Shown piece by piece: positions 55,950-64,000 of a stretch of DNA of 64,000 nucleotides. Location: NCBI RefSeq assembly GCF_000756715.1, contig NZ_CCSE01000001.1, positions 744,001-808,000 on the forward strand. The letters are read 5' to 3'. Source of the DNA: Jeotgalicoccus saudimassiliensis (lineage in GTDB: Bacteria; Bacillota; Bacilli; Staphylococcales; Salinicoccaceae). Each line of letters starts with the position of its first letter. Position 1 is the stretch's first letter. Both the position numbers and the translations under genes were made by a program. The notes under the pieces were generated by a model that ran no database searches, was not told where the DNA came from, and was given only the letters and a program-made list of their open reading frames with translations.

Positions 55950-57005
55950 ATGATTAAATTTGATAAAGTACAACAGTTGATTGAGAGAGAAAACCTTGAT
56001 GCGTTACTCGTAATGAACGGTTATAACAGAAGATATTTAAGTAATTTTACCGGCTCCAGCGGGGCGCTTGTCATTACACCGAAGGGACGATATCTTATAT
56101 CGGATTTCAGGTATAAAGCACAGGGCGCTGAACAGGCTCAGGATTTCGAGTTTGTACTGCAGCAGGGAAGCCTGCTTGATTTCACAGCATCATTTATGAA
56201 ATCAAAGAACATTAAGCGTATTGGTTTCGAAGGGGAACACGTAAACTACAATACATACAGCAGGATTAAAGAAGATTTTGACACAGTACCGTTAACAGGT
56301 GAAGTGGAAAAAATCCGTTTAATCAAAACCGAAGCAGAGCTTGACCTGATTCAGAAAGCATGCGAAATCGCCGATCAGTCATACGAGTACATTTTAACGT
56401 TTGTTAAAGCGGGAATGACTGAACTGGAAGTTAAAAACGAACTTGAAGCGTACATGACAAAACTCGGTGCAAGCGGGCCAAGCTTCGATACGATTGTTGC
56501 GAGCGGTCACAGAGGCGCTCTGCCGCACGGTGTCGCGTCGGACAAAGTAATTGAATCAGGCGATATGGTAACATTGGACTTCGGCGCATATTACCAGGGC
56601 TATGCATCCGACATTACCCGCACATTCGGCGTCGGCTCGGTATCACCTGAAATGGAAAAAATCTACAACGTCGTGCTTGAGTCACAGCTCAAAGCACTGG
56701 ATGAGATTAAAGCAGGTATGTCAGGAAAAGAGGCGGATGCTGTTGCACGTGATGTAATCAGTGCTCACGGATACGGCGACAACTTCGGTCATTCACTCGG
56801 ACACGGCTTCGGACTTGAAGTACATGAATTGCCAGGTCTCGCTCAAAAAAGTACAATGACTTTAGAACCCGGTATGTGCGTCACTGTCGAACCCGGTATT
56901 TATGTAGACGGTCTCGGCGGTGTACGTATTGAAGATGACACACTGGTAACTGAATCCGGTCTAAAAAAATTAACACACAGCAGTAAAAAACTGTTTATCG
57001 TATAA
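55950..57005 (+). CDS. yqhT: Xaa-Pro peptidase (M24 family)
   Basis: The 351-residue protein has a creatinase-like N-terminal domain (about 1-125) and a pita-bread catalytic domain with metal ligands in [18 protein letters not shown] (two Asp), [14 protein letters not shown] (His), TVEPGIYV (Glu) and VRIEDD (Glu). It hydrolyses Xaa-Pro bonds. AGAGGTGACGG precedes the ATG. The neighbour efp encodes a factor for polyproline translation, the classic pairing. Confidence 0.96.
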
Positions 57006-57033
57006 GAGAGACAGATTATCTAGGAGGAAAAAC

Positions 57034-57591
57034 ATGATTTCAGTAAACGATTTTAAAACTGGACTTACAGTAGAAGTAGAAGGCAATATCTGGAGAGTAA
57101 TGGACTTCCAGCACGTTAAACCAGGTAAAGGTGCGGCATTCGTACGCAGTAAATTAAAAAACCTGCGTAACGGATCAATCCAGGAAAAAACTTTCAGAGC
57201 GGGCGAGAAAGTCGGCAGAGCACAAATTGACAACATGAAGATGCAGTACTTATATGCAGACGGCGACAGCTATGTATTTATGGACAACAACACTTACGAT
57301 CAGATTTCAATTCCTGCCGATCAGCTGGAACATGAACTTAAATTCCTTAAAGAAAATATGCCGGTATCGATTATGATGTACGGAAGCGAAACACTCGGAG
57401 TGGAACTGCCGAAAACTGTTGAGCTTGAAGTAACTGAGACTGAACCGGGAATTAAAGGGGACACTGCGAGCGGTGCATCCAAATCAGCTACACTTGAAAC
57501 AGGTATCACTATCCAGGTGCCTCTGTTTGTTAACCAGGGCGATATTCTTGTCGTTAACACAGAAGAAGGTTCTTACGTTTCAAGAGCATAA
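57034..57591 (+). CDS. efp: Elongation factor P
   Basis: The 185-residue three-domain protein has [12 protein letters not shown], with Lys32 at the tip that is modified in many bacteria, and the C-terminal signature [20 protein letters not shown] rescues ribosomes stalled at consecutive prolines. AGGAGG precedes the ATG. It lies 28 bases after yqhT, forming an operon. Confidence 0.98.
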
Positions 57592-57601
57592 TTACAAATA
57601 C

Positions 57602-57628
57602 AGAGCAGTAATTTTTTACTGCTCTTAA
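57602..57628 (+). terminator. Weak terminator after efp
   Basis: A 10-bp perfect stem (AGAGCAGTAA / TTACTGCTCT) is followed by a short T/A-rich stretch rather than a full T-run. Confidence 0.6.
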
Positions 57629-57635
57629 TTAATAC

Positions 57636-57664
57636 TTGAATTGGTATGACCACCTATGTAAAAT
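57636..57664 (+). promoter_or_regulatory. Promoter of accBC
   Basis: TTGAAT (57636-57641) and TAAAAT (57659-57664) have a 17-base spacer, 35 bases before the accB start. Confidence 0.68.
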
Positions 57665-57698
57665 GTAGTACATATTATTTTATGGGAGAGTAAAGCTA

Positions 57699-58136
57699 AT
57701 GAATTTAGAACAAGTCGATTCTTTAATTGAAAAAATGGAGCGCGCATCGCTTACTGAGATTTCTTATAAAGACAAAGATGTGGATATTAAACTGAAAAGA
57801 GAAATAACACAGGCTGTAACTCAGGCGCCTCAGCCGGTACAGACACAGGCAGCACCGCAGCAGGTACAGGCTCCGGCTAAAGAAGTTCAGCCCGAAGACG
57901 AAGGCATCGTTGTAAGAGCACCGATGGTCGGCACGTTCTATAAAGCGCCGTCACCGGAAGCGGATGCTTACGTTAAAGTAGGGGACAAAGTATCAAGCAC
58001 GTCTGTTGTTTGTATTTTGGAAGCAATGAAACTGTTCAACGAAATTCAGGCAGAAGTATCCGGTGAAGTAACTGAAATTCTAGTAGACGACGGAGATATG
58101 GTTGAATACAATCAGCCATTATTCAGATTACGATGA
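57699..58136 (+). CDS. accB: Acetyl-CoA carboxylase biotin carboxyl carrier protein
   Basis: The 145-residue protein has an N-terminal helical segment, a Gln/Pro/Ala-rich flexible linker (about 40-72) and a C-terminal biotinyl domain with the biotin lysine in LEAMKLFNE. It carries carboxybiotin in the first step of fatty acid synthesis. GGGAGAG precedes the ATG. Its stop overlaps accC by four bases. Confidence 0.98.
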   Translation: MNLEQVDSLIEKMERASLTEISYKDKDVDIKLKREITQAVTQAPQPVQTQAAPQQVQAPAKEVQPEDEGIVVRAPMVGTFYKAPSPEADAYVKVGDKVSSTSVVCILEAMKLFNEIQAEVSGEVTEILVDDGDMVEYNQPLFRLR

Positions 58137-59482
58137 TTAAAAAAGTACTCATAGCAAACCGCGGGGAAATTGCGGTACGTATCATCCGTGCATGTCACGA
58201 ACTTGGTATCGAGACTGTCAGTATATACTCTGAAGCAGACAAGGATAGTTTACACCGGAAACTAGCGACAGAATCTTACTGCATCGGACCAAAACTTTCC
58301 AAAGACAGCTACCTGGATATGATCGGTATTATTACGATTGCACAATCCACGGGCTGTGATGCCATTCACCCGGGTTACGGGTTCCTGGCTGAAAACAGTG
58401 ATTTCGCAGAAATGTGTGAATCATCAAGCCTGATCTTTATCGGACCGATGTCTGAGACGATTTCTCTTATGGGCGTTAAAGACGTAGCAAAGAAAACGAT
58501 GATCGAAGCAGACGTTCCGACAGTGCCGGGCAGCGACGGTGTGGTTAAATCCATCGAAGATGCTTATAAAATCGCTGATGAAATCGGCTATCCGATTATT
58601 ATTAAAGCAAGCCACGGCGGCGGCGGTAAAGGAATCAGAGTCGCACGCAATAAAGATGAACTGACACAAAACTATAAATTGACCGAGCAGGAAGCTGAGA
58701 GTGCATTCGGCAATAAGAGTCTTTATATTGAAAAATATATCGAGAACTTCCGCCACGTTGAAATTCAGGTGCTCGGAGACTACCACGGCAACGTCGTTCA
58801 TCTCGGTGAACGCGACTGTACAGTACAGCGCCGCATGCAGAAACTCGTAGAAGAAGCACCAAGTCCGGTGATCAGTGACAAGACGAGACGTGAAATGGGA
58901 GAAACTGCTGTCCGTGCAGCGAAAAGCATCGATTATATCGGTGCCGGTACTATTGAGTTCATCTATGACTTAAACGAGCAGAAATATTACTTCATGGAAA
59001 TGAACACCCGTATTCAGGTAGAGCACCCGGTAACAGAAATGATTACGGGCATTGACCTTGTAAAATCACAAATCCAGGTTGCTATGCATGAAGAGCTGCC
59101 GTTTAAACAGGAAGACATTAAATTCGAAGGACACGCATTTGAATTCAGAATCAATGCGGAGAACCCTTATAAGAACTTTATGCCTTCTGCAGGGAAGATT
59201 AAAGACTTCCTTCAGCCGGGCGGATTCGGTGTGAGAATGGATACTGCATCATATGCAGGCTACGTTATTCCGCCGTATTACGATTCGATGATTGCAAAAC
59301 TGATTGTACACGGCAAAGACCGCACAGAAGCAATCCAGACAGCAAAACGCGCACTCGGGGAATTCCAGATCAGCGGCATCGATACGACAATTCCGTTCCA
59401 CCAGAACATACTGTTAAACGATGACTTCCTGAATAATGATTACAACACTAACTTCTTAGCAGAACATGACATTATGAATTAA
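58133..59482 (+). CDS. accC: Acetyl-CoA carboxylase biotin carboxylase subunit
   Basis: The 449-residue ATP-grasp enzyme begins MIKKVLIANRGEIAVRI and has the glycine-rich ATP lid SHGGGGKG, VEIQVLGD and EMNTRIQVEHPVTE with catalytic Arg/Glu residues. It carboxylates the biotin of AccB. Coupled to accB by a 4-base overlap. A terminator follows, then an inserted lipoprotein gene before yqhY. Confidence 0.98.
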   Translation: MIKKVLIANRGEIAVRIIRACHELGIETVSIYSEADKDSLHRKLATESYCIGPKLSKDSYLDMIGIITIAQSTGCDAIHPGYGFLAENSDFAEMCESSSLIFIGPMSETISLMGVKDVAKKTMIEADVPTVPGSDGVVKSIEDAYKIADEIGYPIIIKASHGGGGKGIRVARNKDELTQNYKLTEQEAESAFGNKSLYIEKYIENFRHVEIQVLGDYHGNVVHLGERDCTVQRRMQKLVEEAPSPVISDKTRREMGETAVRAAKSIDYIGAGTIEFIYDLNEQKYYFMEMNTRIQVEHPVTEMITGIDLVKSQIQVAMHEELPFKQEDIKFEGHAFEFRINAENPYKNFMPSAGKIKDFLQPGGFGVRMDTASYAGYVIPPYYDSMIAKLIVHGKDRTEAIQTAKRALGEFQISGIDTTIPFHQNILLNDDFLNNDYNTNFLAEHDIMN

Positions 59483-59489
59483 TACTCTG

Positions 59490-59532
59490 AACCGTCTTTT
59501 CATTCCGTTTTGGGATGGATAGGCGGTTTTTA
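59490..59532 (+). terminator. Terminator of accBC
   Basis: AACCGTC pairs with GGCGGTT (one wobble), with an inner helix ATTCC/GGGAT in the intervening sequence, followed by TTTTTAT. Confidence 0.72.
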
Positions 59533-59706
59533 TCTTGTTAAAGTAAGCGAGGGAATTTTTAATATTGAGTAAGCGTGAGCAGCACAAATCCTGTTTGAAG
59601 CATTTCTGTACATAAATAAACAGAAAAGTCTAAAATTTAATAGCTTTCTCTCCTCGGATTCATTATAATTAATGTAAATATATTGAATTTAAGGGAGATA
59701 TGTAAA

Positions 59707-60459
59707 TTGAAGAAAATGCTGGTAATTGGTAGTTTATCGTCTGTGTTATTACTTGGTGCATGTGGTGCAGCAGAAGAAAGCGAAGATACTGTTGCAAACG
59801 ATGAAAATATAACAGCTATCGAAGAGGAGAACGAGCAGCTTAATCAGCAAATTGATGAGCTTGAGAATCAGGTCAGTGAACTGGAAAAACAAAACTCTGA
59901 AGAACAGGATAATAGTGATACTGGTGAGCTCGAAGAAGAAAACAAACAACTTAATGAACAGGTAGCAAACCTGGAAAATCAACTGTCGGAAAAGGATGAT
60001 CAAATAGCAAGTTTAGAATCCGGGCTTGAAGAAGCCGAAACTAAAGTAGAAGAAATGGAGCTCGCAGCGGCTGAAGCGGATCAGGAAGAACAGGCGGAGC
60101 CCGAAGAAGACGCTGCGGAAGAAACTGCATCTTCAGATTCAGAATCCGGTGATATCCCGAGAGAATGGGAATCTGCGTTGAACAGTGCGTATAACTATGC
60201 TGAAATTATGAGCATGTCAAAGGCGGGTATATACGATCAGCTTGTATCAGAATATGGAGAAGCATTCCCGGAAGAGGCTGCACAGTACGCAATTGATAAC
60301 ATTGAATTTGACTGGAATGCCAACGCCCTGAAATCAGCAGAAAATTATCAGGATATAATGAACATGTCACACTCCGCTATTTATGATCAGCTCGTCTCTG
60401 AATATGGTGAAAAATTCACACCGGAACAAGCGCAATATGCAGTTGATAATCTGGAATAA
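59707..60459 (+). CDS. Lipoprotein with coiled coil and two Ltp-type repeats
   Basis: The 250-residue protein has a lipoprotein signal (lipobox LGAC, Cys19), a long Glu/Gln/Asn heptad coiled coil (about 35-125), a Glu/Ala-rich acidic stretch, and two C-terminal repeats of about 47 residues (roughly 152-203 and 204-250). Both repeats contain an IYDQLVSEYGE core, the host cell surface-exposed lipoprotein (Ltp) motif. Ltp domains occur in phage TP-J34 superinfection-exclusion lipoprotein and in bacterial surface proteins. The TTG start has AAGGGAG nine bases upstream. It interrupts the usual accC-yqhY order. Confidence 0.85.
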   Translation: MKKMLVIGSLSSVLLLGACGAAEESEDTVANDENITAIEEENEQLNQQIDELENQVSELEKQNSEEQDNSDTGELEEENKQLNEQVANLENQLSEKDDQIASLESGLEEAETKVEEMELAAAEADQEEQAEPEEDAAEETASSDSESGDIPREWESALNSAYNYAEIMSMSKAGIYDQLVSEYGEAFPEEAAQYAIDNIEFDWNANALKSAENYQDIMNMSHSAIYDQLVSEYGEKFTPEQAQYAVDNLE

Positions 60460-60469
60460 TCAAAATATC

Positions 60470-60498
60470 GGTCGGCTTTTTTAAGCCGGTCATTTTTT
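60470..60498 (+). terminator. Terminator of the Ltp lipoprotein gene
   Basis: A 9-bp stem (GGTCGGCTT / AAGCCGGTC, two wobbles) with a short loop is followed by seven T. Confidence 0.8.
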
Positions 60499-60543
60499 TA
60501 TCCTTGGAAGTATGATGGCTGCGGTGGGGCAAGGTTGTTTTCT

Positions 60544-60690
60544 CGGGAATGAGGGTCGTTCATTGCGGAGAAAAGTCGCTTCCTCGGGAATGAGGGTCGT
60601 TCATTGCGGAGAAAAGTTGCTTTTCCGGGAATGAGGCGCACTCATTGCGGTGCAAACGCACTTTCCCGGGTGCAAAGTCGCTCACCCCGG
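60544..60690. repeat. 41-bp tandem repeat, about 3.5 copies
   Basis: Units begin with CGGG at 60544, 60585, 60626 and 60667, exactly 41 bases apart. Units 1 and 2 are nearly identical, unit 3 is diverged, and unit 4 is truncated. Each full unit can form a hairpin AATGAG-N5-(T/C)TCATT. The 400-base gap 60460-60859 otherwise holds only the terminator at its start and the yqhY promoter at its end. The region is richer in G+C than its surroundings; no credible gene was seen. Confidence 0.92.
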
Positions 60691-60811
60691 AATCGCCCCC
60701 GCACCCAATTGACTAAACCCGCAAATAGACATATATTTAAAGTAATAAAAACAGCATTTTTCACATTTCCCGAGCGCCCTCTATTGTTTATCAATCCATT
60801 CAGCAAACCAT

Positions 60812-60840
60812 TTAATATTACCGGCATCACGTGATATAAT
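60812..60840 (+). promoter_or_regulatory. Promoter of yqhY-nusB-xseAB-ispA
   Basis: TTAATA (60812-60817) and TATAAT (60835-60840) have a 17-base spacer and an extended TGA. The palindrome ATCACGTGAT (60826-60835) abuts the -10 box. Confidence 0.62.
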
Positions 60841-60859
60841 AAAACAGTGAGGTGATTGT

Positions 60860-61210
60860 ATGATTTTACAAAATCATAATACAAATTTAGGCAGCATCGA
60901 AATTTCCAGTGAAGTCATTGAAGTAATCGCAAGTATTGCGGTTGAGGAAACTAAAGGCGTTCACTCATTGCAAAATAATTTTGCCAGTGGTAATATCGAA
61001 AAGATTGGGAAGAAATTCCGCGGTCGCGGTGTTAAAGTCGAGACTAAAGATGATCAGATTCACATTGCGATTTACGTCGTATTATCAACTGACCGGAACG
61101 TTCACAGTGTAGCTGAGCGTATTCAGGAAAATGTTAAACAAGCTGTAAATGATATGCTCGAAGTCAAAGTTAACGAAACTAACGTACACATCGTTAATAT
61201 TATTAAATAA
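60860..61210 (+). CDS. yqhY: Asp23/Gls24 family protein
   Basis: The 116-residue protein has the Asp23 fold: LGSIEISSEVIEVIASIAVEETKGVHSL, a basic middle, VKVETKDDQIHIAIYVVL and a C-terminal VNVHIVNI-like strand. The B. subtilis orthologue, encoded next to accBC, influences lipid synthesis. GAGGTGATTGT precedes the ATG. Here it is separated from accC by 1.4 kb of inserted sequence and has its own promoter. Confidence 0.95.
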   Translation: MILQNHNTNLGSIEISSEVIEVIASIAVEETKGVHSLQNNFASGNIEKIGKKFRGRGVKVETKDDQIHIAIYVVLSTDRNVHSVAERIQENVKQAVNDMLEVKVNETNVHIVNIIK

Positions 61211-61236
61211 GTTAATAGATAGGTTTAGGTGTAAGC

Positions 61237-61620
61237 ATGAAAAGACATGAACAACGCAAGAAAGCATTTCAGCTGTTATTCCAGACAGACAAAAACGTCG
61301 TTGAACTGAAAGAAGCACGTTTTTACGAAGTGTACCAGACTGAAACATTTGTTAAATCGGTAGTCGATTACTACATTCACAACCAGGAAAAAGTAAATGA
61401 TGAAATCAGCCGTTACTTAACAGGATATACGATTGAACGTATATCAAAAGTTGAAAGAAATATATTACGCCTCGCAGTAAGCGAACTGCAAAGTCACGGC
61501 GCGCCTGTAAAGGTCGTTATTGACGAAGCGATTAAACTCGCTAAAAACTACGGTGACAAAGACAGCCACCGTTTCGTAAACGGGGTACTGAAGAACTTTG
61601 CCGTGCAGAATGAAGGTTAG
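61237..61620 (+). CDS. nusB: Transcription antitermination factor NusB
   Basis: The 127-residue helical protein begins MKRHEQRKKAFQLLFQ and contains RISKVERNILRLAVSEL and VIDEAIKLAKNYGDKDSHRFVNGVL, all NusB marks. It acts in rRNA antitermination with NusA, NusE and NusG. It follows yqhY by 26 bases. Confidence 0.97.
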   Translation: MKRHEQRKKAFQLLFQTDKNVVELKEARFYEVYQTETFVKSVVDYYIHNQEKVNDEISRYLTGYTIERISKVERNILRLAVSELQSHGAPVKVVIDEAIKLAKNYGDKDSHRFVNGVLKNFAVQNEG

Positions 61621-61626
61621 GTAAAA

Positions 61627-62967
61627 ATGGATAGTACAAAGTATTTATCAGTTCAGTCCTTAACAAAATATATTAAATATAAATTTGAAAAAGACCCGTA
61701 CCTGCAACGGGTCTTTCTTAAAGGTGAGCTGTCGAATGTGAAACATCATACGAACGGCCACATATATTTTTCTATAAAAGATGACAGGTCTGTCATCAGT
61801 GCGGTCATGTTCAGATACGACGCCGAAAAGCTGAATTTCAAACCCGAAGAGGGGCAGAATGTGCTTTTAGCTGGAAACATTACTCTGTACGAAGCCCGCG
61901 GCCAGTACCAGATTTACGTCAAGGAGATGCAGATTGACGGTATCGGCCAACTGTTTTTAAAACTTGAACAAAATAAAGAGCTGCTGAAGAAAAAAGGCTA
62001 TCTGAACCCGGAGCATAAAAAGCCGATTCCTGCTTTCCCGGAACACATTGCCATCGTGTCTTCCAGTACAAGTGCAGCTATTAAAGATATGATTACCACT
62101 TTATCACGCAGATATCCGCTGGTTAAAGTGACATTATTAAATACATACGTACAGGGCGGACGAAGTCAGGAGAGTGTCCTGACAAACTTAAGCCGTGCGG
62201 ACAAGCTTGGTGCGGATACAGTGATTCTCGCACGGGGCGGAGGGTCTATTGAAGATCTCTGGACGTTTAACGAGCTGGAAGTCGCGCTGCAGGTATTTAA
62301 TATGAATACACCGGTAATTACCGGTGTCGGCCACGAAACGGACATTACGCTTGTGGATTACGTGAGTGATCTGCGTGCACCGACGCCGACAGCTGCAGCG
62401 GAACAGGCAGTGCCGAACATGCGGGATTTACATCTCCGCCTCGGTGAACTCAAGAGGCAGTCCGACAGTCTCTTACTGACTAAAATTGACCGTTCCAAAA
62501 AACATCTCGAGAGTTTATCAAACTATTATAAGTTTAAAAATCCGAATTTATTATATACAGAGCAGACGGAAAAACTCAGAGATCTGACTTTGACGCTCGA
62601 CAACTATATGTCGATGTCGCTCCGTGAACACCGTTACACGCTCGATAAAACAAAAGCATCACTGTCGTATAACAACCCGGCTCCCCGTATTAAAGATTCA
62701 CAGGCGGAGCGGCTGAGAACAGAAGACGAGCTGAAACGCCGCATGAAAGCACTGCTTGGCCAGAAGGCAGAGCGGCTTGCCGGCAATATTAACATGCTGG
62801 AATCAGTCAGTCCGGTGCAGATATTAAAAAGAGGCTATTCTTATACGACGTTTAATAATAAAATAGTCACAGAAGCAGAAAACTTAAAAGTTGGCGATAT
62901 GATTGAAACTTCATTTAATCGGGGAACAGTCAGCGCGAAAGTGACAGAGGTGAATACAGATGACTAA
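61627..62967 (+). CDS. xseA: Exodeoxyribonuclease VII large subunit
   Basis: The 446-residue protein has an N-terminal OB fold (FLKGELSNVKHHTNGHIYFSIKDD), the catalytic domain with SSTSAAIKDM, ILARGGGSIEDLW and GVGHETDITL, and a long C-terminal coiled coil. With XseB it degrades single-stranded DNA. It overlaps xseB by 8 bases. Confidence 0.98.
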   Translation: MDSTKYLSVQSLTKYIKYKFEKDPYLQRVFLKGELSNVKHHTNGHIYFSIKDDRSVISAVMFRYDAEKLNFKPEEGQNVLLAGNITLYEARGQYQIYVKEMQIDGIGQLFLKLEQNKELLKKKGYLNPEHKKPIPAFPEHIAIVSSSTSAAIKDMITTLSRRYPLVKVTLLNTYVQGGRSQESVLTNLSRADKLGADTVILARGGGSIEDLWTFNELEVALQVFNMNTPVITGVGHETDITLVDYVSDLRAPTPTAAAEQAVPNMRDLHLRLGELKRQSDSLLLTKIDRSKKHLESLSNYYKFKNPNLLYTEQTEKLRDLTLTLDNYMSMSLREHRYTLDKTKASLSYNNPAPRIKDSQAERLRTEDELKRRMKALLGQKAERLAGNINMLESVSPVQILKRGYSYTTFNNKIVTEAENLKVGDMIETSFNRGTVSAKVTEVNTDD

Positions 62968-63169
62968 AAATGATCAGACTTTTGAAATGAAAATGACCAG
63001 ATTGGAAACAATCGTCAAGTCGCTGGACGAAGAGGAAGTATCTCTTGAGAAGTCGCTTGAGCTTTATCAGGAAGGTATTAAACTTTCACAGGAATGCGAC
63101 AACATACTGAAAAATGCAGAGTTAAAAGTTGAAGAACTGAATAAGGACACTGACAGCGATGGAGAATAA
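62960..63169 (+). CDS. xseB: Exodeoxyribonuclease VII small subunit
   Basis: The 69-residue helical protein has the family pattern FEMKMTRLETIVKSLDEEEV and LEKSLELYQEGIKL. It binds the coiled coil of XseA. GAGGTGAATACAG precedes the ATG. The ispA start overlaps its end by 11 bases. Confidence 0.96.
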   Translation: MTKNDQTFEMKMTRLETIVKSLDEEEVSLEKSLELYQEGIKLSQECDNILKNAELKVEELNKDTDSDGE

Positions 63170-64000
63170 CTTATCCGGCATCGCTAAAGTGAGAGCGAAC
63201 ATTCTCAATCACCTGAATACGTATCAGCATTCTGAAACGATTTACAACGCAAGTAAATATTCGATTGAAGCCGGCGGCAAGGGACTGCGTCCTCTGCTTT
63301 TATTTACTGTACTTGAAGCGCTGGGAGAATCTCCTGATAAAGGAATCAGCGCCGCATCCGCAATTGAAATGATTCATACGTATTCGCTTATTCACGACGA
63401 TCTGCCGGCGATGGATAACGATGACTTAAGACGCGGCAAGCCGACGAATCATATCGTCTTCGGTGAAGGTACTGCGATCCTCGCGGGAGATAATCTGCTG
63501 AACGAAAGCTTTAACGTGATTGCAAAAGATAAGGAATTAACTGCAGAAGTGAGAATCAGACTCGTTGAAACCATCTCAACTGCAAGTGGACAGTCGGGCA
63601 TGATCAGCGGACAGATGCTTGATATCGAGGCTGAAAAACGGGCAACAACGCTGGAAGAGCTTGAAACGATTCACGCATATAAAACCGGCGCACTGATAAA
63701 AGCACCGGTAACCGCAGCATGCATTATTGCAGATGCTGCGCAGGAAGTTACCCGCCGGCTTGAGAATTTCAGCGAGGTAATCGGTGTGCTTTTCCAGATA
63801 AAAGATGATATTTTAGACATGGAAGGAAATCCTGAACTGACAGGTAAAAATACAGGCAGTGACGTTAAAAAAGGCAAAGTCACTTATGTAAGCGAACTTG
63901 GACTGGACGGAGCAAAAGGTGCATTAGCTGACAAAGTTGACGAAGCGTACCGTATTCTTGACAGCCTGAATGAATTAATATCGACAGCAGGATTACGTAA
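63159..64000 (+). CDS. ispA: Farnesyl/geranyl-type polyprenyl diphosphate synthase, 3' end cut by the window
   Basis: About 280 codons are present and the frame is still open at base 64000; family members have about 290-300 residues, so little is missing. The first Asp-rich motif is HDDLPAMDNDD and the second KDDILD, with GGKGLRP near the N-terminus and GQMLDIEAE in the middle. It condenses IPP with allylic diphosphates, using the MEP products implied by ispG and ispH. ATG 63159 lies within xseB. Confidence 0.96.
   Translation, partial: MENNLSGIAKVRANILNHLNTYQHSETIYNASKYSIEAGGKGLRPLLLFTVLEALGESPDKGISAASAIEMIHTYSLIHDDLPAMDNDDLRRGKPTNHIVFGEGTAILAGDNLLNESFNVIAKDKELTAEVRIRLVETISTASGQSGMISGQMLDIEAEKRATTLEELETIHAYKTGALIKAPVTAACIIADAAQEVTRRLENFSEVIGVLFQIKDDILDMEGNPELTGKNTGSDVKKGKVTYVSELGLDGAKGALADKVDEAYRILDSLNELISTAGLR

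What the first reader, a model, noticed from the sequence alone, without database searches (positions are those of the whole stretch)
59533..60859. Insertion between accC and yqhY carrying an Ltp-repeat lipoprotein
accBC-yqhY-nusB-xseA is a conserved block in staphylococci and bacilli. Here about 1.4 kb separates accC from yqhY and contains a single lipoprotein gene plus a repeat array. The lipoprotein joins a lipobox, a long coiled coil and two Ltp-type repeats. Ltp domains are known from a streptococcal phage lipoprotein that blocks DNA injection by superinfecting phages, so a cell-surface anti-phage or envelope role is a testable hypothesis. The coiled coil could hold the repeats away from the membrane.
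Basis: partly seen in the sequence, partly recalled or inferred. Interest (0 to 1): 0.6.

Follow-up and report, generated by a model that had tools for sequence, protein, structure and literature searches.

The report
Stalked Ltp lipoprotein between core genes
A surface lipoprotein resembling a phage-encoded protein that stops rival phages from injecting DNA sits, on a long coiled-coil stalk, as a lone accessory gene between two core genes of a Jeotgalicoccus bacterium; it may be a cell-owned anti-phage protein, but its function is untested.

Summary
Window 59707-60459 (+) encodes 250 residues: lipobox, two coiled-coil segments (35-62, 73-124) and two Ltp repeats (PF07553, E 6e-49). The predicted repeats match solved Ltp of phage TP-J34 (4eqq; rmsd 1.2 A, 44% identity). 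It is an insertion: in 121 Staphylococcales genomes with colinear accC and yqhY the median gap is 47 nt; only 6 exceed 300 nt, all of this genus. Of 8 scorable genus genomes, 3 hold the intact gene there, 1 a remnant, 2 other content or a scar, 2 nothing. Two sister species carry a second gene in the slot. The stalked subfamily is one branch of the Ltp tree and occupies two other intergenic slots in Salinicoccus/Lacicoccus. The repeat array is unrelated: a 41-nt palindromic family with 62 matches at 9 places in the genome. Most likely it is a cell-encoded superinfection-exclusion lipoprotein that blocks phage DNA entry, with a coiled-coil spacer. Architecture, fold, charge, selection and distribution were tested; anti-phage activity was not. 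Strong constraint on the repeats keeps a conserved cellular ligand as a rival.

The parts
58133..59482 (+). accC, left flank (core)
   Evidence: ORF of 449 aa; match in 33 of 33 family genomes
59489..59529 (+). hairpin ending in a T run after accC, possible terminator
   Evidence: 59483-59535 folds at -22.6 kcal/mol; the consensus scan did not list it
59664..59669 (+). TATAAT, candidate -10 box of the lipoprotein gene; no good -35
   Evidence: read from sequence; not listed as a promoter by the scan
59707..60459 (+). stalked Ltp lipoprotein, 250 aa, TTG start
59707..59763 (+). signal peptide with lipobox LGAC; Cys19 expected to carry the lipid
   Evidence: sequence and pattern match
59809..60078 (+). 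coiled-coil stalk, residues 35-62 and 73-124
   Evidence: AF2 helices 32-67 and 71-128; best a/d hydrophobic fraction 0.88 and 0.67, each reached in 0 of 5000 shuffles; the two joined in one register are reached by 211 of 5000
60157..60306 (+). Ltp repeat 1, residues 151-200
   Evidence: PF07553; helices 152-168, 172-180, 189-198
60307..60456 (+). Ltp repeat 2, residues 201-250
   Evidence: PF07553 best stretch 202-249; helices 203-218, 222-230, 239-247
60470..60501 (+). intrinsic terminator-like site after the lipoprotein gene
   Evidence: 9-pair stem plus T run
60539..60670 (+). 41-nt palindromic tandem repeat array (genome-wide family)
60709..60737 (+). promoter-like site before yqhY (TTGACT-17-TATATT)
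   Evidence: 6 promoter-like sites found in the stretch, 4.1 expected, so weak alone; a similar sequence is seen in G003, G007 and G002
60860..61210 (+). yqhY (Asp23-type, name recalled), right flank (core)

Best explanation
It is a cell-encoded, accessory superinfection-exclusion-type lipoprotein. The signal peptide and lipobox send it to the outer face of the membrane, where Cys19 is lipidated. Two coiled-coil segments (about 94 helical residues, up to roughly 14 nm if extended) hold two acidic helix-turn-helix Ltp repeats away from the membrane. There the repeats would bind the basic end of the tape measure protein of an incoming siphophage and stop DNA entry, as reported for TP-J34 Ltp. 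Shown here: architecture, predicted fold, acidity, purifying selection on the repeats, insertion into a core intergenic slot, and patchy presence with remnants. Inferred: lipidation, surface position, coiled-coil oligomerisation, target and anti-phage effect.
For: PF07553 E 6e-49, two repeats; PHROG 4980 'superinfection exclusion' over residues 1-250, 1.9e-49. PDB 4eqq by sequence, 4e-18, and by fold, rmsd 1.2 A, target TM 0.90 and 0.93. Net charge -15 in the repeats, in line with the negative residues reported to meet the positive TMP end (PMC3952083, passages). Same anchor-spacer-repeat order as TP-J34 Ltp. Of 86 phage records with a match I opened 8; in 5 the homologue lies beside a repressor or integrase gene, in 2 it does not (50, 56), and 1 is unannotated (55). 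Patchy presence: a match in 17 of 33 family and 56 of 150 order genomes (divergent copies and remnants included), with a remnant and scars in the slot.
Against: No phage assay. No tape measure protein of a Jeotgalicoccus phage was examined. The repeats change very little within the genus (97% amino acids at 82% nucleotide identity), which suggests a constant partner rather than diverse phage proteins. PADLOC gave only weak matches (best 2.5e-5; 25 of 32 shown) to long coiled-coil proteins. The gene is not in a prophage-like place. In 70 loci outside the family, integrase-like neighbours recur in only 6 and repressor-like ones in 7 (phage genes were not searched for as such).
Confidence: 0.55

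Rival explanations
1. The Ltp repeats bind a conserved cell-envelope ligand (a wall polymer, a lipid or a host membrane protein). The protein is an envelope factor, and phage exclusion is a derived use by phages.
For: dN/dS 0.02 in the repeats against 0.19 in the stalk, versus J. psychrophilus. In 31 aligned relatives, 31 repeat positions are invariant and 22 more nearly so. Relatives at 65-75% in many Bacillota and some Actinomycetota contigs. The pneumococcal wall protein CbpL carries an Ltp domain without a lipobox, and its authors expect a protein or wall partner (PMC5137146, passages).
Against: The 31 rows were picked from the 80 best relatives of a scan seeded on this protein, so conservation is overstated; other Ltp proteins are far more divergent (39-46% in G001, G005, G006; 46-65% in the listed phages). 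The gene is dispensable: no match in 16 of 33 family genomes, with decay in the slot. No neighbour recurs in more than 7 of 70 loci, many of them short contigs. The family function tested in the papers seen is phage exclusion (PMC3952083).
Confidence: 0.22
2. It is a decaying relic of a former prophage or island, expressed little or not at all and without present function.
For: The slot decays in sisters: remnant in G002, scar in G003, no Ltp gene in G007; a second gene of the insert is missing here.
Against: Intact ORF, SD-like sequence, lipobox and terminator-like site. Repeat 1 is 100% identical in protein to J. halotolerans at 81% nucleotide identity, so it is under purifying selection.
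Confidence: 0.08
3. It is an adhesin or spacer lipoprotein for surface interaction in which the stalk is the working part and the repeats are only a cap.
For: Long, fast-evolving, very acidic stalk (-44 over residues 20-150); coiled-coil surface proteins often act as spacers (recalled).
Against: The stalk diverges fast (65% and 49% identity to the two genus copies) while the repeats hardly change (97% and 93%), so the constraint is on the repeats.
Confidence: 0.08

Closest known systems
Ltp of Streptococcus thermophilus phage TP-J34 (PDB 4eqq; PF07553)
   Same: Lipid anchor, spacer and two acidic helix-turn-helix repeats; 44% identity and rmsd 1.2 A over 101 columns
   Different: Spacer is a two-part coiled coil instead of a Ser-rich linker; lies between accC and yqhY, not in a lysogeny module; exclusion activity not shown
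Stalked Ltp lipoproteins of Salinicoccus and Lacicoccus
   Same: Same lipobox, coiled coil and repeats; one branch of the Ltp tree (100/98); 71-81% identity in the repeats
   Different: Located between pckA and metK (6 genomes) or ackA and a usp-like gene (2 genomes) (gene names recognised by eye)
CbpL of Streptococcus pneumoniae (PMC5137146, passages)
   Same: Surface-exposed protein with a C-terminal Ltp domain
   Different: Choline-binding anchor, no lipobox, a single Ltp domain of about 50 residues
STAR elements of staphylococci (PMC3532100), for the repeat array only
   Same: Intergenic repeats with a recurring spacing near 40 bp (14-bp repeats at least 40 bp apart), several loci per genome, locations differing between species
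   Different: The units here are 41-mers with a palindromic core; the STAR consensus is absent from the printed units

Membership tests
Lipoprotein_Ltp (PF07553) | Match to the curated profile above the gathering score | tested here: met
   164.4 bits against 23.2, two stretches
Lipoprotein_Ltp (PF07553) | Two helix-turn-helix repeats with the 4eqq fold | tested here: met
   predicted model
Lipoprotein_Ltp (PF07553) | Acidic repeat domain | tested here: met
   net charge -15 for residues 151-250
Lipoprotein_Ltp (PF07553) | Membrane-anchoring N-terminus (lipobox) | tested here: met
   MKKMLVIGSLSSVLLLGAC by sequence and pattern; lipidation itself not tested
Superinfection-exclusion system of the TP-J34 type | Blocks DNA injection of infecting phages | not testable with these tools
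   needs phage assays
Superinfection-exclusion system of the TP-J34 type | Binds the tape measure protein of the infecting phage | not testable with these tools
   no phage of this host was examined
Superinfection-exclusion system of the TP-J34 type | Encoded in a prophage lysogeny module | tested here: not met
   flanked by accC and yqhY; no integrase or repressor recognised by eye among the ORFs at 56000-64000; the rest of the window was not scanned
Superinfection-exclusion system of the TP-J34 type | Ser-rich spacer between anchor and repeats (prototype feature) | tested here: not met
   coiled-coil segments occupy this place
STAR elements (repeat array) | Consensus T(G/A/T)TGTTG(G/T)GGCCC(C/A) | tested here: not met
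   absent from the units printed, by reading
Core gene of the accC-yqhY block | Present at this place in most relatives | tested here: not met
   intact in 3 of 8 scorable genus genomes; outside the genus the largest of the 121 colinear gaps is 268 nt, too short for it

The most novel reading that the evidence does not exclude
Staphylococcales cells carry a domesticated, stalked form of phage Ltp that changes position among core intergenic slots without an evident mobile element and is repeatedly lost. Its coiled coil would act as a ruler, setting the repeats at a fixed height in the wall zone. The repeats recognise a conserved envelope component that many phages must pass or copy, which would explain both phage exclusion and the constraint on the repeats.
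Probability: 0.15. Interest if true: 0.65.

Novelty: new variant of a known kind. Interest (0 to 1): 0.42.

Why it matters
The Ltp proteins in the papers seen are mostly prophage genes, yet Ltp-repeat genes occur patchily in Staphylococcales assemblies (56 of 150 genomes; outside the family chromosome, prophage and plasmid were not told apart). A cell-owned form with a constrained head and a fast-changing stalk lets two things be tested: whether bacteria keep Ltp as a stand-alone exclusion protein, and whether the spacer sets its phage range. The second question is prompted by the report that Ltp without its lipid anchor has a wider range (PMC3952083, passages).

Tried and rejected
Repeat array as part of the inserted unit: rejected, since the same family has 62 matches at 9 places in the genome. 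The one Rfam match, mir-503 at E 0.21 and 20.7 bits against a cut-off of 54, was treated as chance. Known defence-system membership by PADLOC: only weak matches to long coiled-coil proteins. NCBIfam SA0632 family lipoprotein (8e-10, 38.2 bits against a cut-off of 70) covers residues 1-68 only, so it was rejected as the family name. The companion 180-aa protein of sister slots and the 104-aa protein of G007 have no usable Pfam, NCBIfam, PADLOC or PHROG match. A relic of the gene in the own pckA-metK slot was sought and not found; the one weak hit in that stretch (E 0.09) lies outside the slot. A recurrent neighbour was sought in 70 loci outside the family: the commonest non-self clusters were LexA/repressor-like (7 loci, at least one of them probably a true LexA), integrase-like (6), a SufC-like ATPase (6), and two others at 4 loci, one recombinase-like; names by recognition. 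The tree rests on 102 columns, its bootstrap had not settled, and several rows are long branches, so only the starred family branch is used. The lipobox count (21 of 81) is rough: start codons were picked automatically, L091 was started too late (compare), and some pattern matches lie in transmembrane segments; it is not used as a result. dN/dS was often undefined because synonymous sites are saturated.

Literature searched for the stalked form or for chromosomal Ltp function: (listings, the longer ones cut at 15 or 20 rows). No coiled-coil Ltp lipoprotein was seen in those listings. Seen as passages: PMC3952083, PMC5137146, PMC12322248, PMC6356513; as one section and abstract: PMC3532100; as abstract and outline: PMC11480721. 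Sun 2006 and Bebeacua 2013 were not read.

Full report
What is there. The interval between accC (ends 59482) and yqhY (starts 60860) is 1377 nt. It holds one ORF of 250 codons from a TTG at 59707, preceded by AAGGGAG, ending at 60459. A hairpin with a T run follows accC (-22.6 kcal/mol; not listed by the consensus scan) and a terminator-like site follows the ORF, so the gene may be its own transcription unit. A TATAAT lies at 59664-59669, but no good -35 box was found. A promoter-like site precedes yqhY at 60709; the scan found 6 such sites in the stretch against 4.1 expected, so it is weak evidence alone. The window lies in a 2.19 Mb genome in one contig. Two of its same-genus genomes have contigs of exactly the length of named Jeotgalicoccus halotolerans and J. 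psychrophilus records, so the genus is Jeotgalicoccus; the species was not identified.

The protein. Pfam finds PF07553 (Lipoprotein_Ltp) twice, E 6e-49, and PHROGs a superinfection-exclusion family over residues 1-250, 1.9e-49. The N-terminus MKKMLVIGSLSSVLLLGAC is a lipoprotein signal. Residues 35-62 and 73-124 have heptad patterns, each unmatched in 5000 shuffles; joined in one register they are matched by 211 of 5000, so there are two coiled-coil segments with a break. AlphaFold2 gives helices 32-67 and 71-128 and a confident pair of three-helix repeats at 152-198 and 203-247 (block pLDDT 95-98 from residue 151; pTM 0.44 overall, so stalk and head are not placed relative to each other). 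Foldseek puts the repeats on 4eqq, phage TP-J34 Ltp: rmsd 1.2 A, target TM 0.90 and 0.93, 44% identity; phmmer agrees, 4e-18. Net charge is -57 overall, -15 in the repeats.

It is an insertion. In 150 Staphylococcales genomes YqhY was found in 127 and the AccC C-terminus in 135. In the 121 with both in line, the median gap between matches is 47 nt; six exceed 300 nt, all in this genus, and the largest elsewhere is 268 nt. Of the nine genus genomes, the Ltp gene is intact in the slot in G000, G004 and G008. G002 keeps a piece of the repeats (start gone, repeats fused). G003 keeps only the start of a companion gene. G007 has the companion gene but no Ltp gene. G005 and G006 have gaps of 128 and 97 nt. 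G009 ends at a contig edge and cannot be scored. In G004 and G008 the slot holds two genes, a 180-aa protein followed by the lipoprotein; the first is missing in the window. That companion matches 4 of 33 family genomes, one of them at 31% identity, and no known family.

Where it came from. Relatives at 71-81% identity in the repeats occur in Salinicoccus and Lacicoccus, mostly in other fixed slots: pckA-metK in six genomes, ackA-usp in two, with a remnant of about 52 residues at pckA-metK in S. carnicancri, which also has a differently anchored copy elsewhere (flanking gene names recognised by eye). The own pckA-metK slot shows no relic. Eleven stalked copies form one branch of the repeat tree (100/98; few columns, bootstrap not settled). 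In an alignment of 31 of 81 proteins, columns 61-148 (the stalk) are filled only in the nine family rows; the other 50 proteins were not checked for a stalk in that way. The simplest history is one stalked lipoprotein, old in the family, relocated between core intergenic slots or passed between its genera, and lost several times. No mobile gene was recognised beside it, but distant parts of the window were not scanned for prophages.

Selection. Against J. halotolerans the repeats are 97% identical in amino acids but 82% in nucleotides (repeat 1: 100% and 81%), while the stalk is 65% identical in amino acids. Against J. psychrophilus dN/dS is 0.02 for the repeats and 0.19 for the stalk (several values were undefined through saturation). 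The head is under strong purifying selection; the stalk is loosely constrained in sequence, as expected of a spacer.

Function. TP-J34 Ltp consists of lipid anchor, Ser-rich spacer and repeat domain, prevents DNA injection, and is thought to act through negatively charged residues meeting the positively charged end of the tape measure protein (PMC3952083, passages). The window protein has the same order of parts and the same sign of charge. Of 86 phage records with a match I opened 8; in 5 the homologue lies beside a repressor or integrase gene, in 2 not, and 1 is unannotated. A cell-owned exclusion lipoprotein is therefore the best reading (0.55). Against it: no assay, and repeats so constrained within the genus that a conserved envelope ligand is a serious rival (0.22), as proposed in general terms for the Ltp domain of CbpL (PMC5137146, passages). 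The cross-phylum conservation seen is overstated by the way the rows were found: listed phage copies are 46-65% identical, and the copies of G001, G005 and G006 39-46%.

The repeat array. The 41-nt units contain a short palindrome (AATGA...TCATT) and recur as 62 matches at nine places in this genome, with 0 matches to the reversed control pattern. A like array lies in the slot of G008, while the G002 slot and a G005 locus have arrays of 42 and 41 nt with other sequences. They resemble STAR elements in layout (PMC3532100, background section) but not in consensus. They are not part of the lipoprotein system.

Verdict. The gene is a new variant of a known kind; its function is not shown.

Noticed in passing
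window 60539-60670; L179-L186: A 41-nt palindromic tandem repeat family, 62 core matches at 9 places in the genome; other Jeotgalicoccus genomes carry 41-42-nt arrays of different sequence (G002 slot, G005 in L080), so the period is nearly kept while the sequence changes.
   Followed up: partly
L062 (G007) 1-760: In G007 a roughly 650-nt segment with a 104-aa unknown gene lies between two similar copies of the accC 3' end, like a small element integrated at that gene end.
   Followed up: no
L062 825-1370; L063 and L066 (reverse strand): A 180-aa companion protein (MNNFLEVFNDEL...) precedes the lipoprotein in two sister species; no known family, 4 of 33 family genomes (one at 31% identity).
   Followed up: partly
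L080, L081 (G005, G006): Jeotgalicoccus species with an empty slot carry a different membrane-anchored protein with several divergent Ltp-like repeats elsewhere (about 45% identity).
   Followed up: no
L078 (S. carnicancri), L079 (G031): Three-repeat Ltp proteins with a transmembrane-type anchor and an acidic linker, outside the stalked branch in the tree.
   Followed up: no
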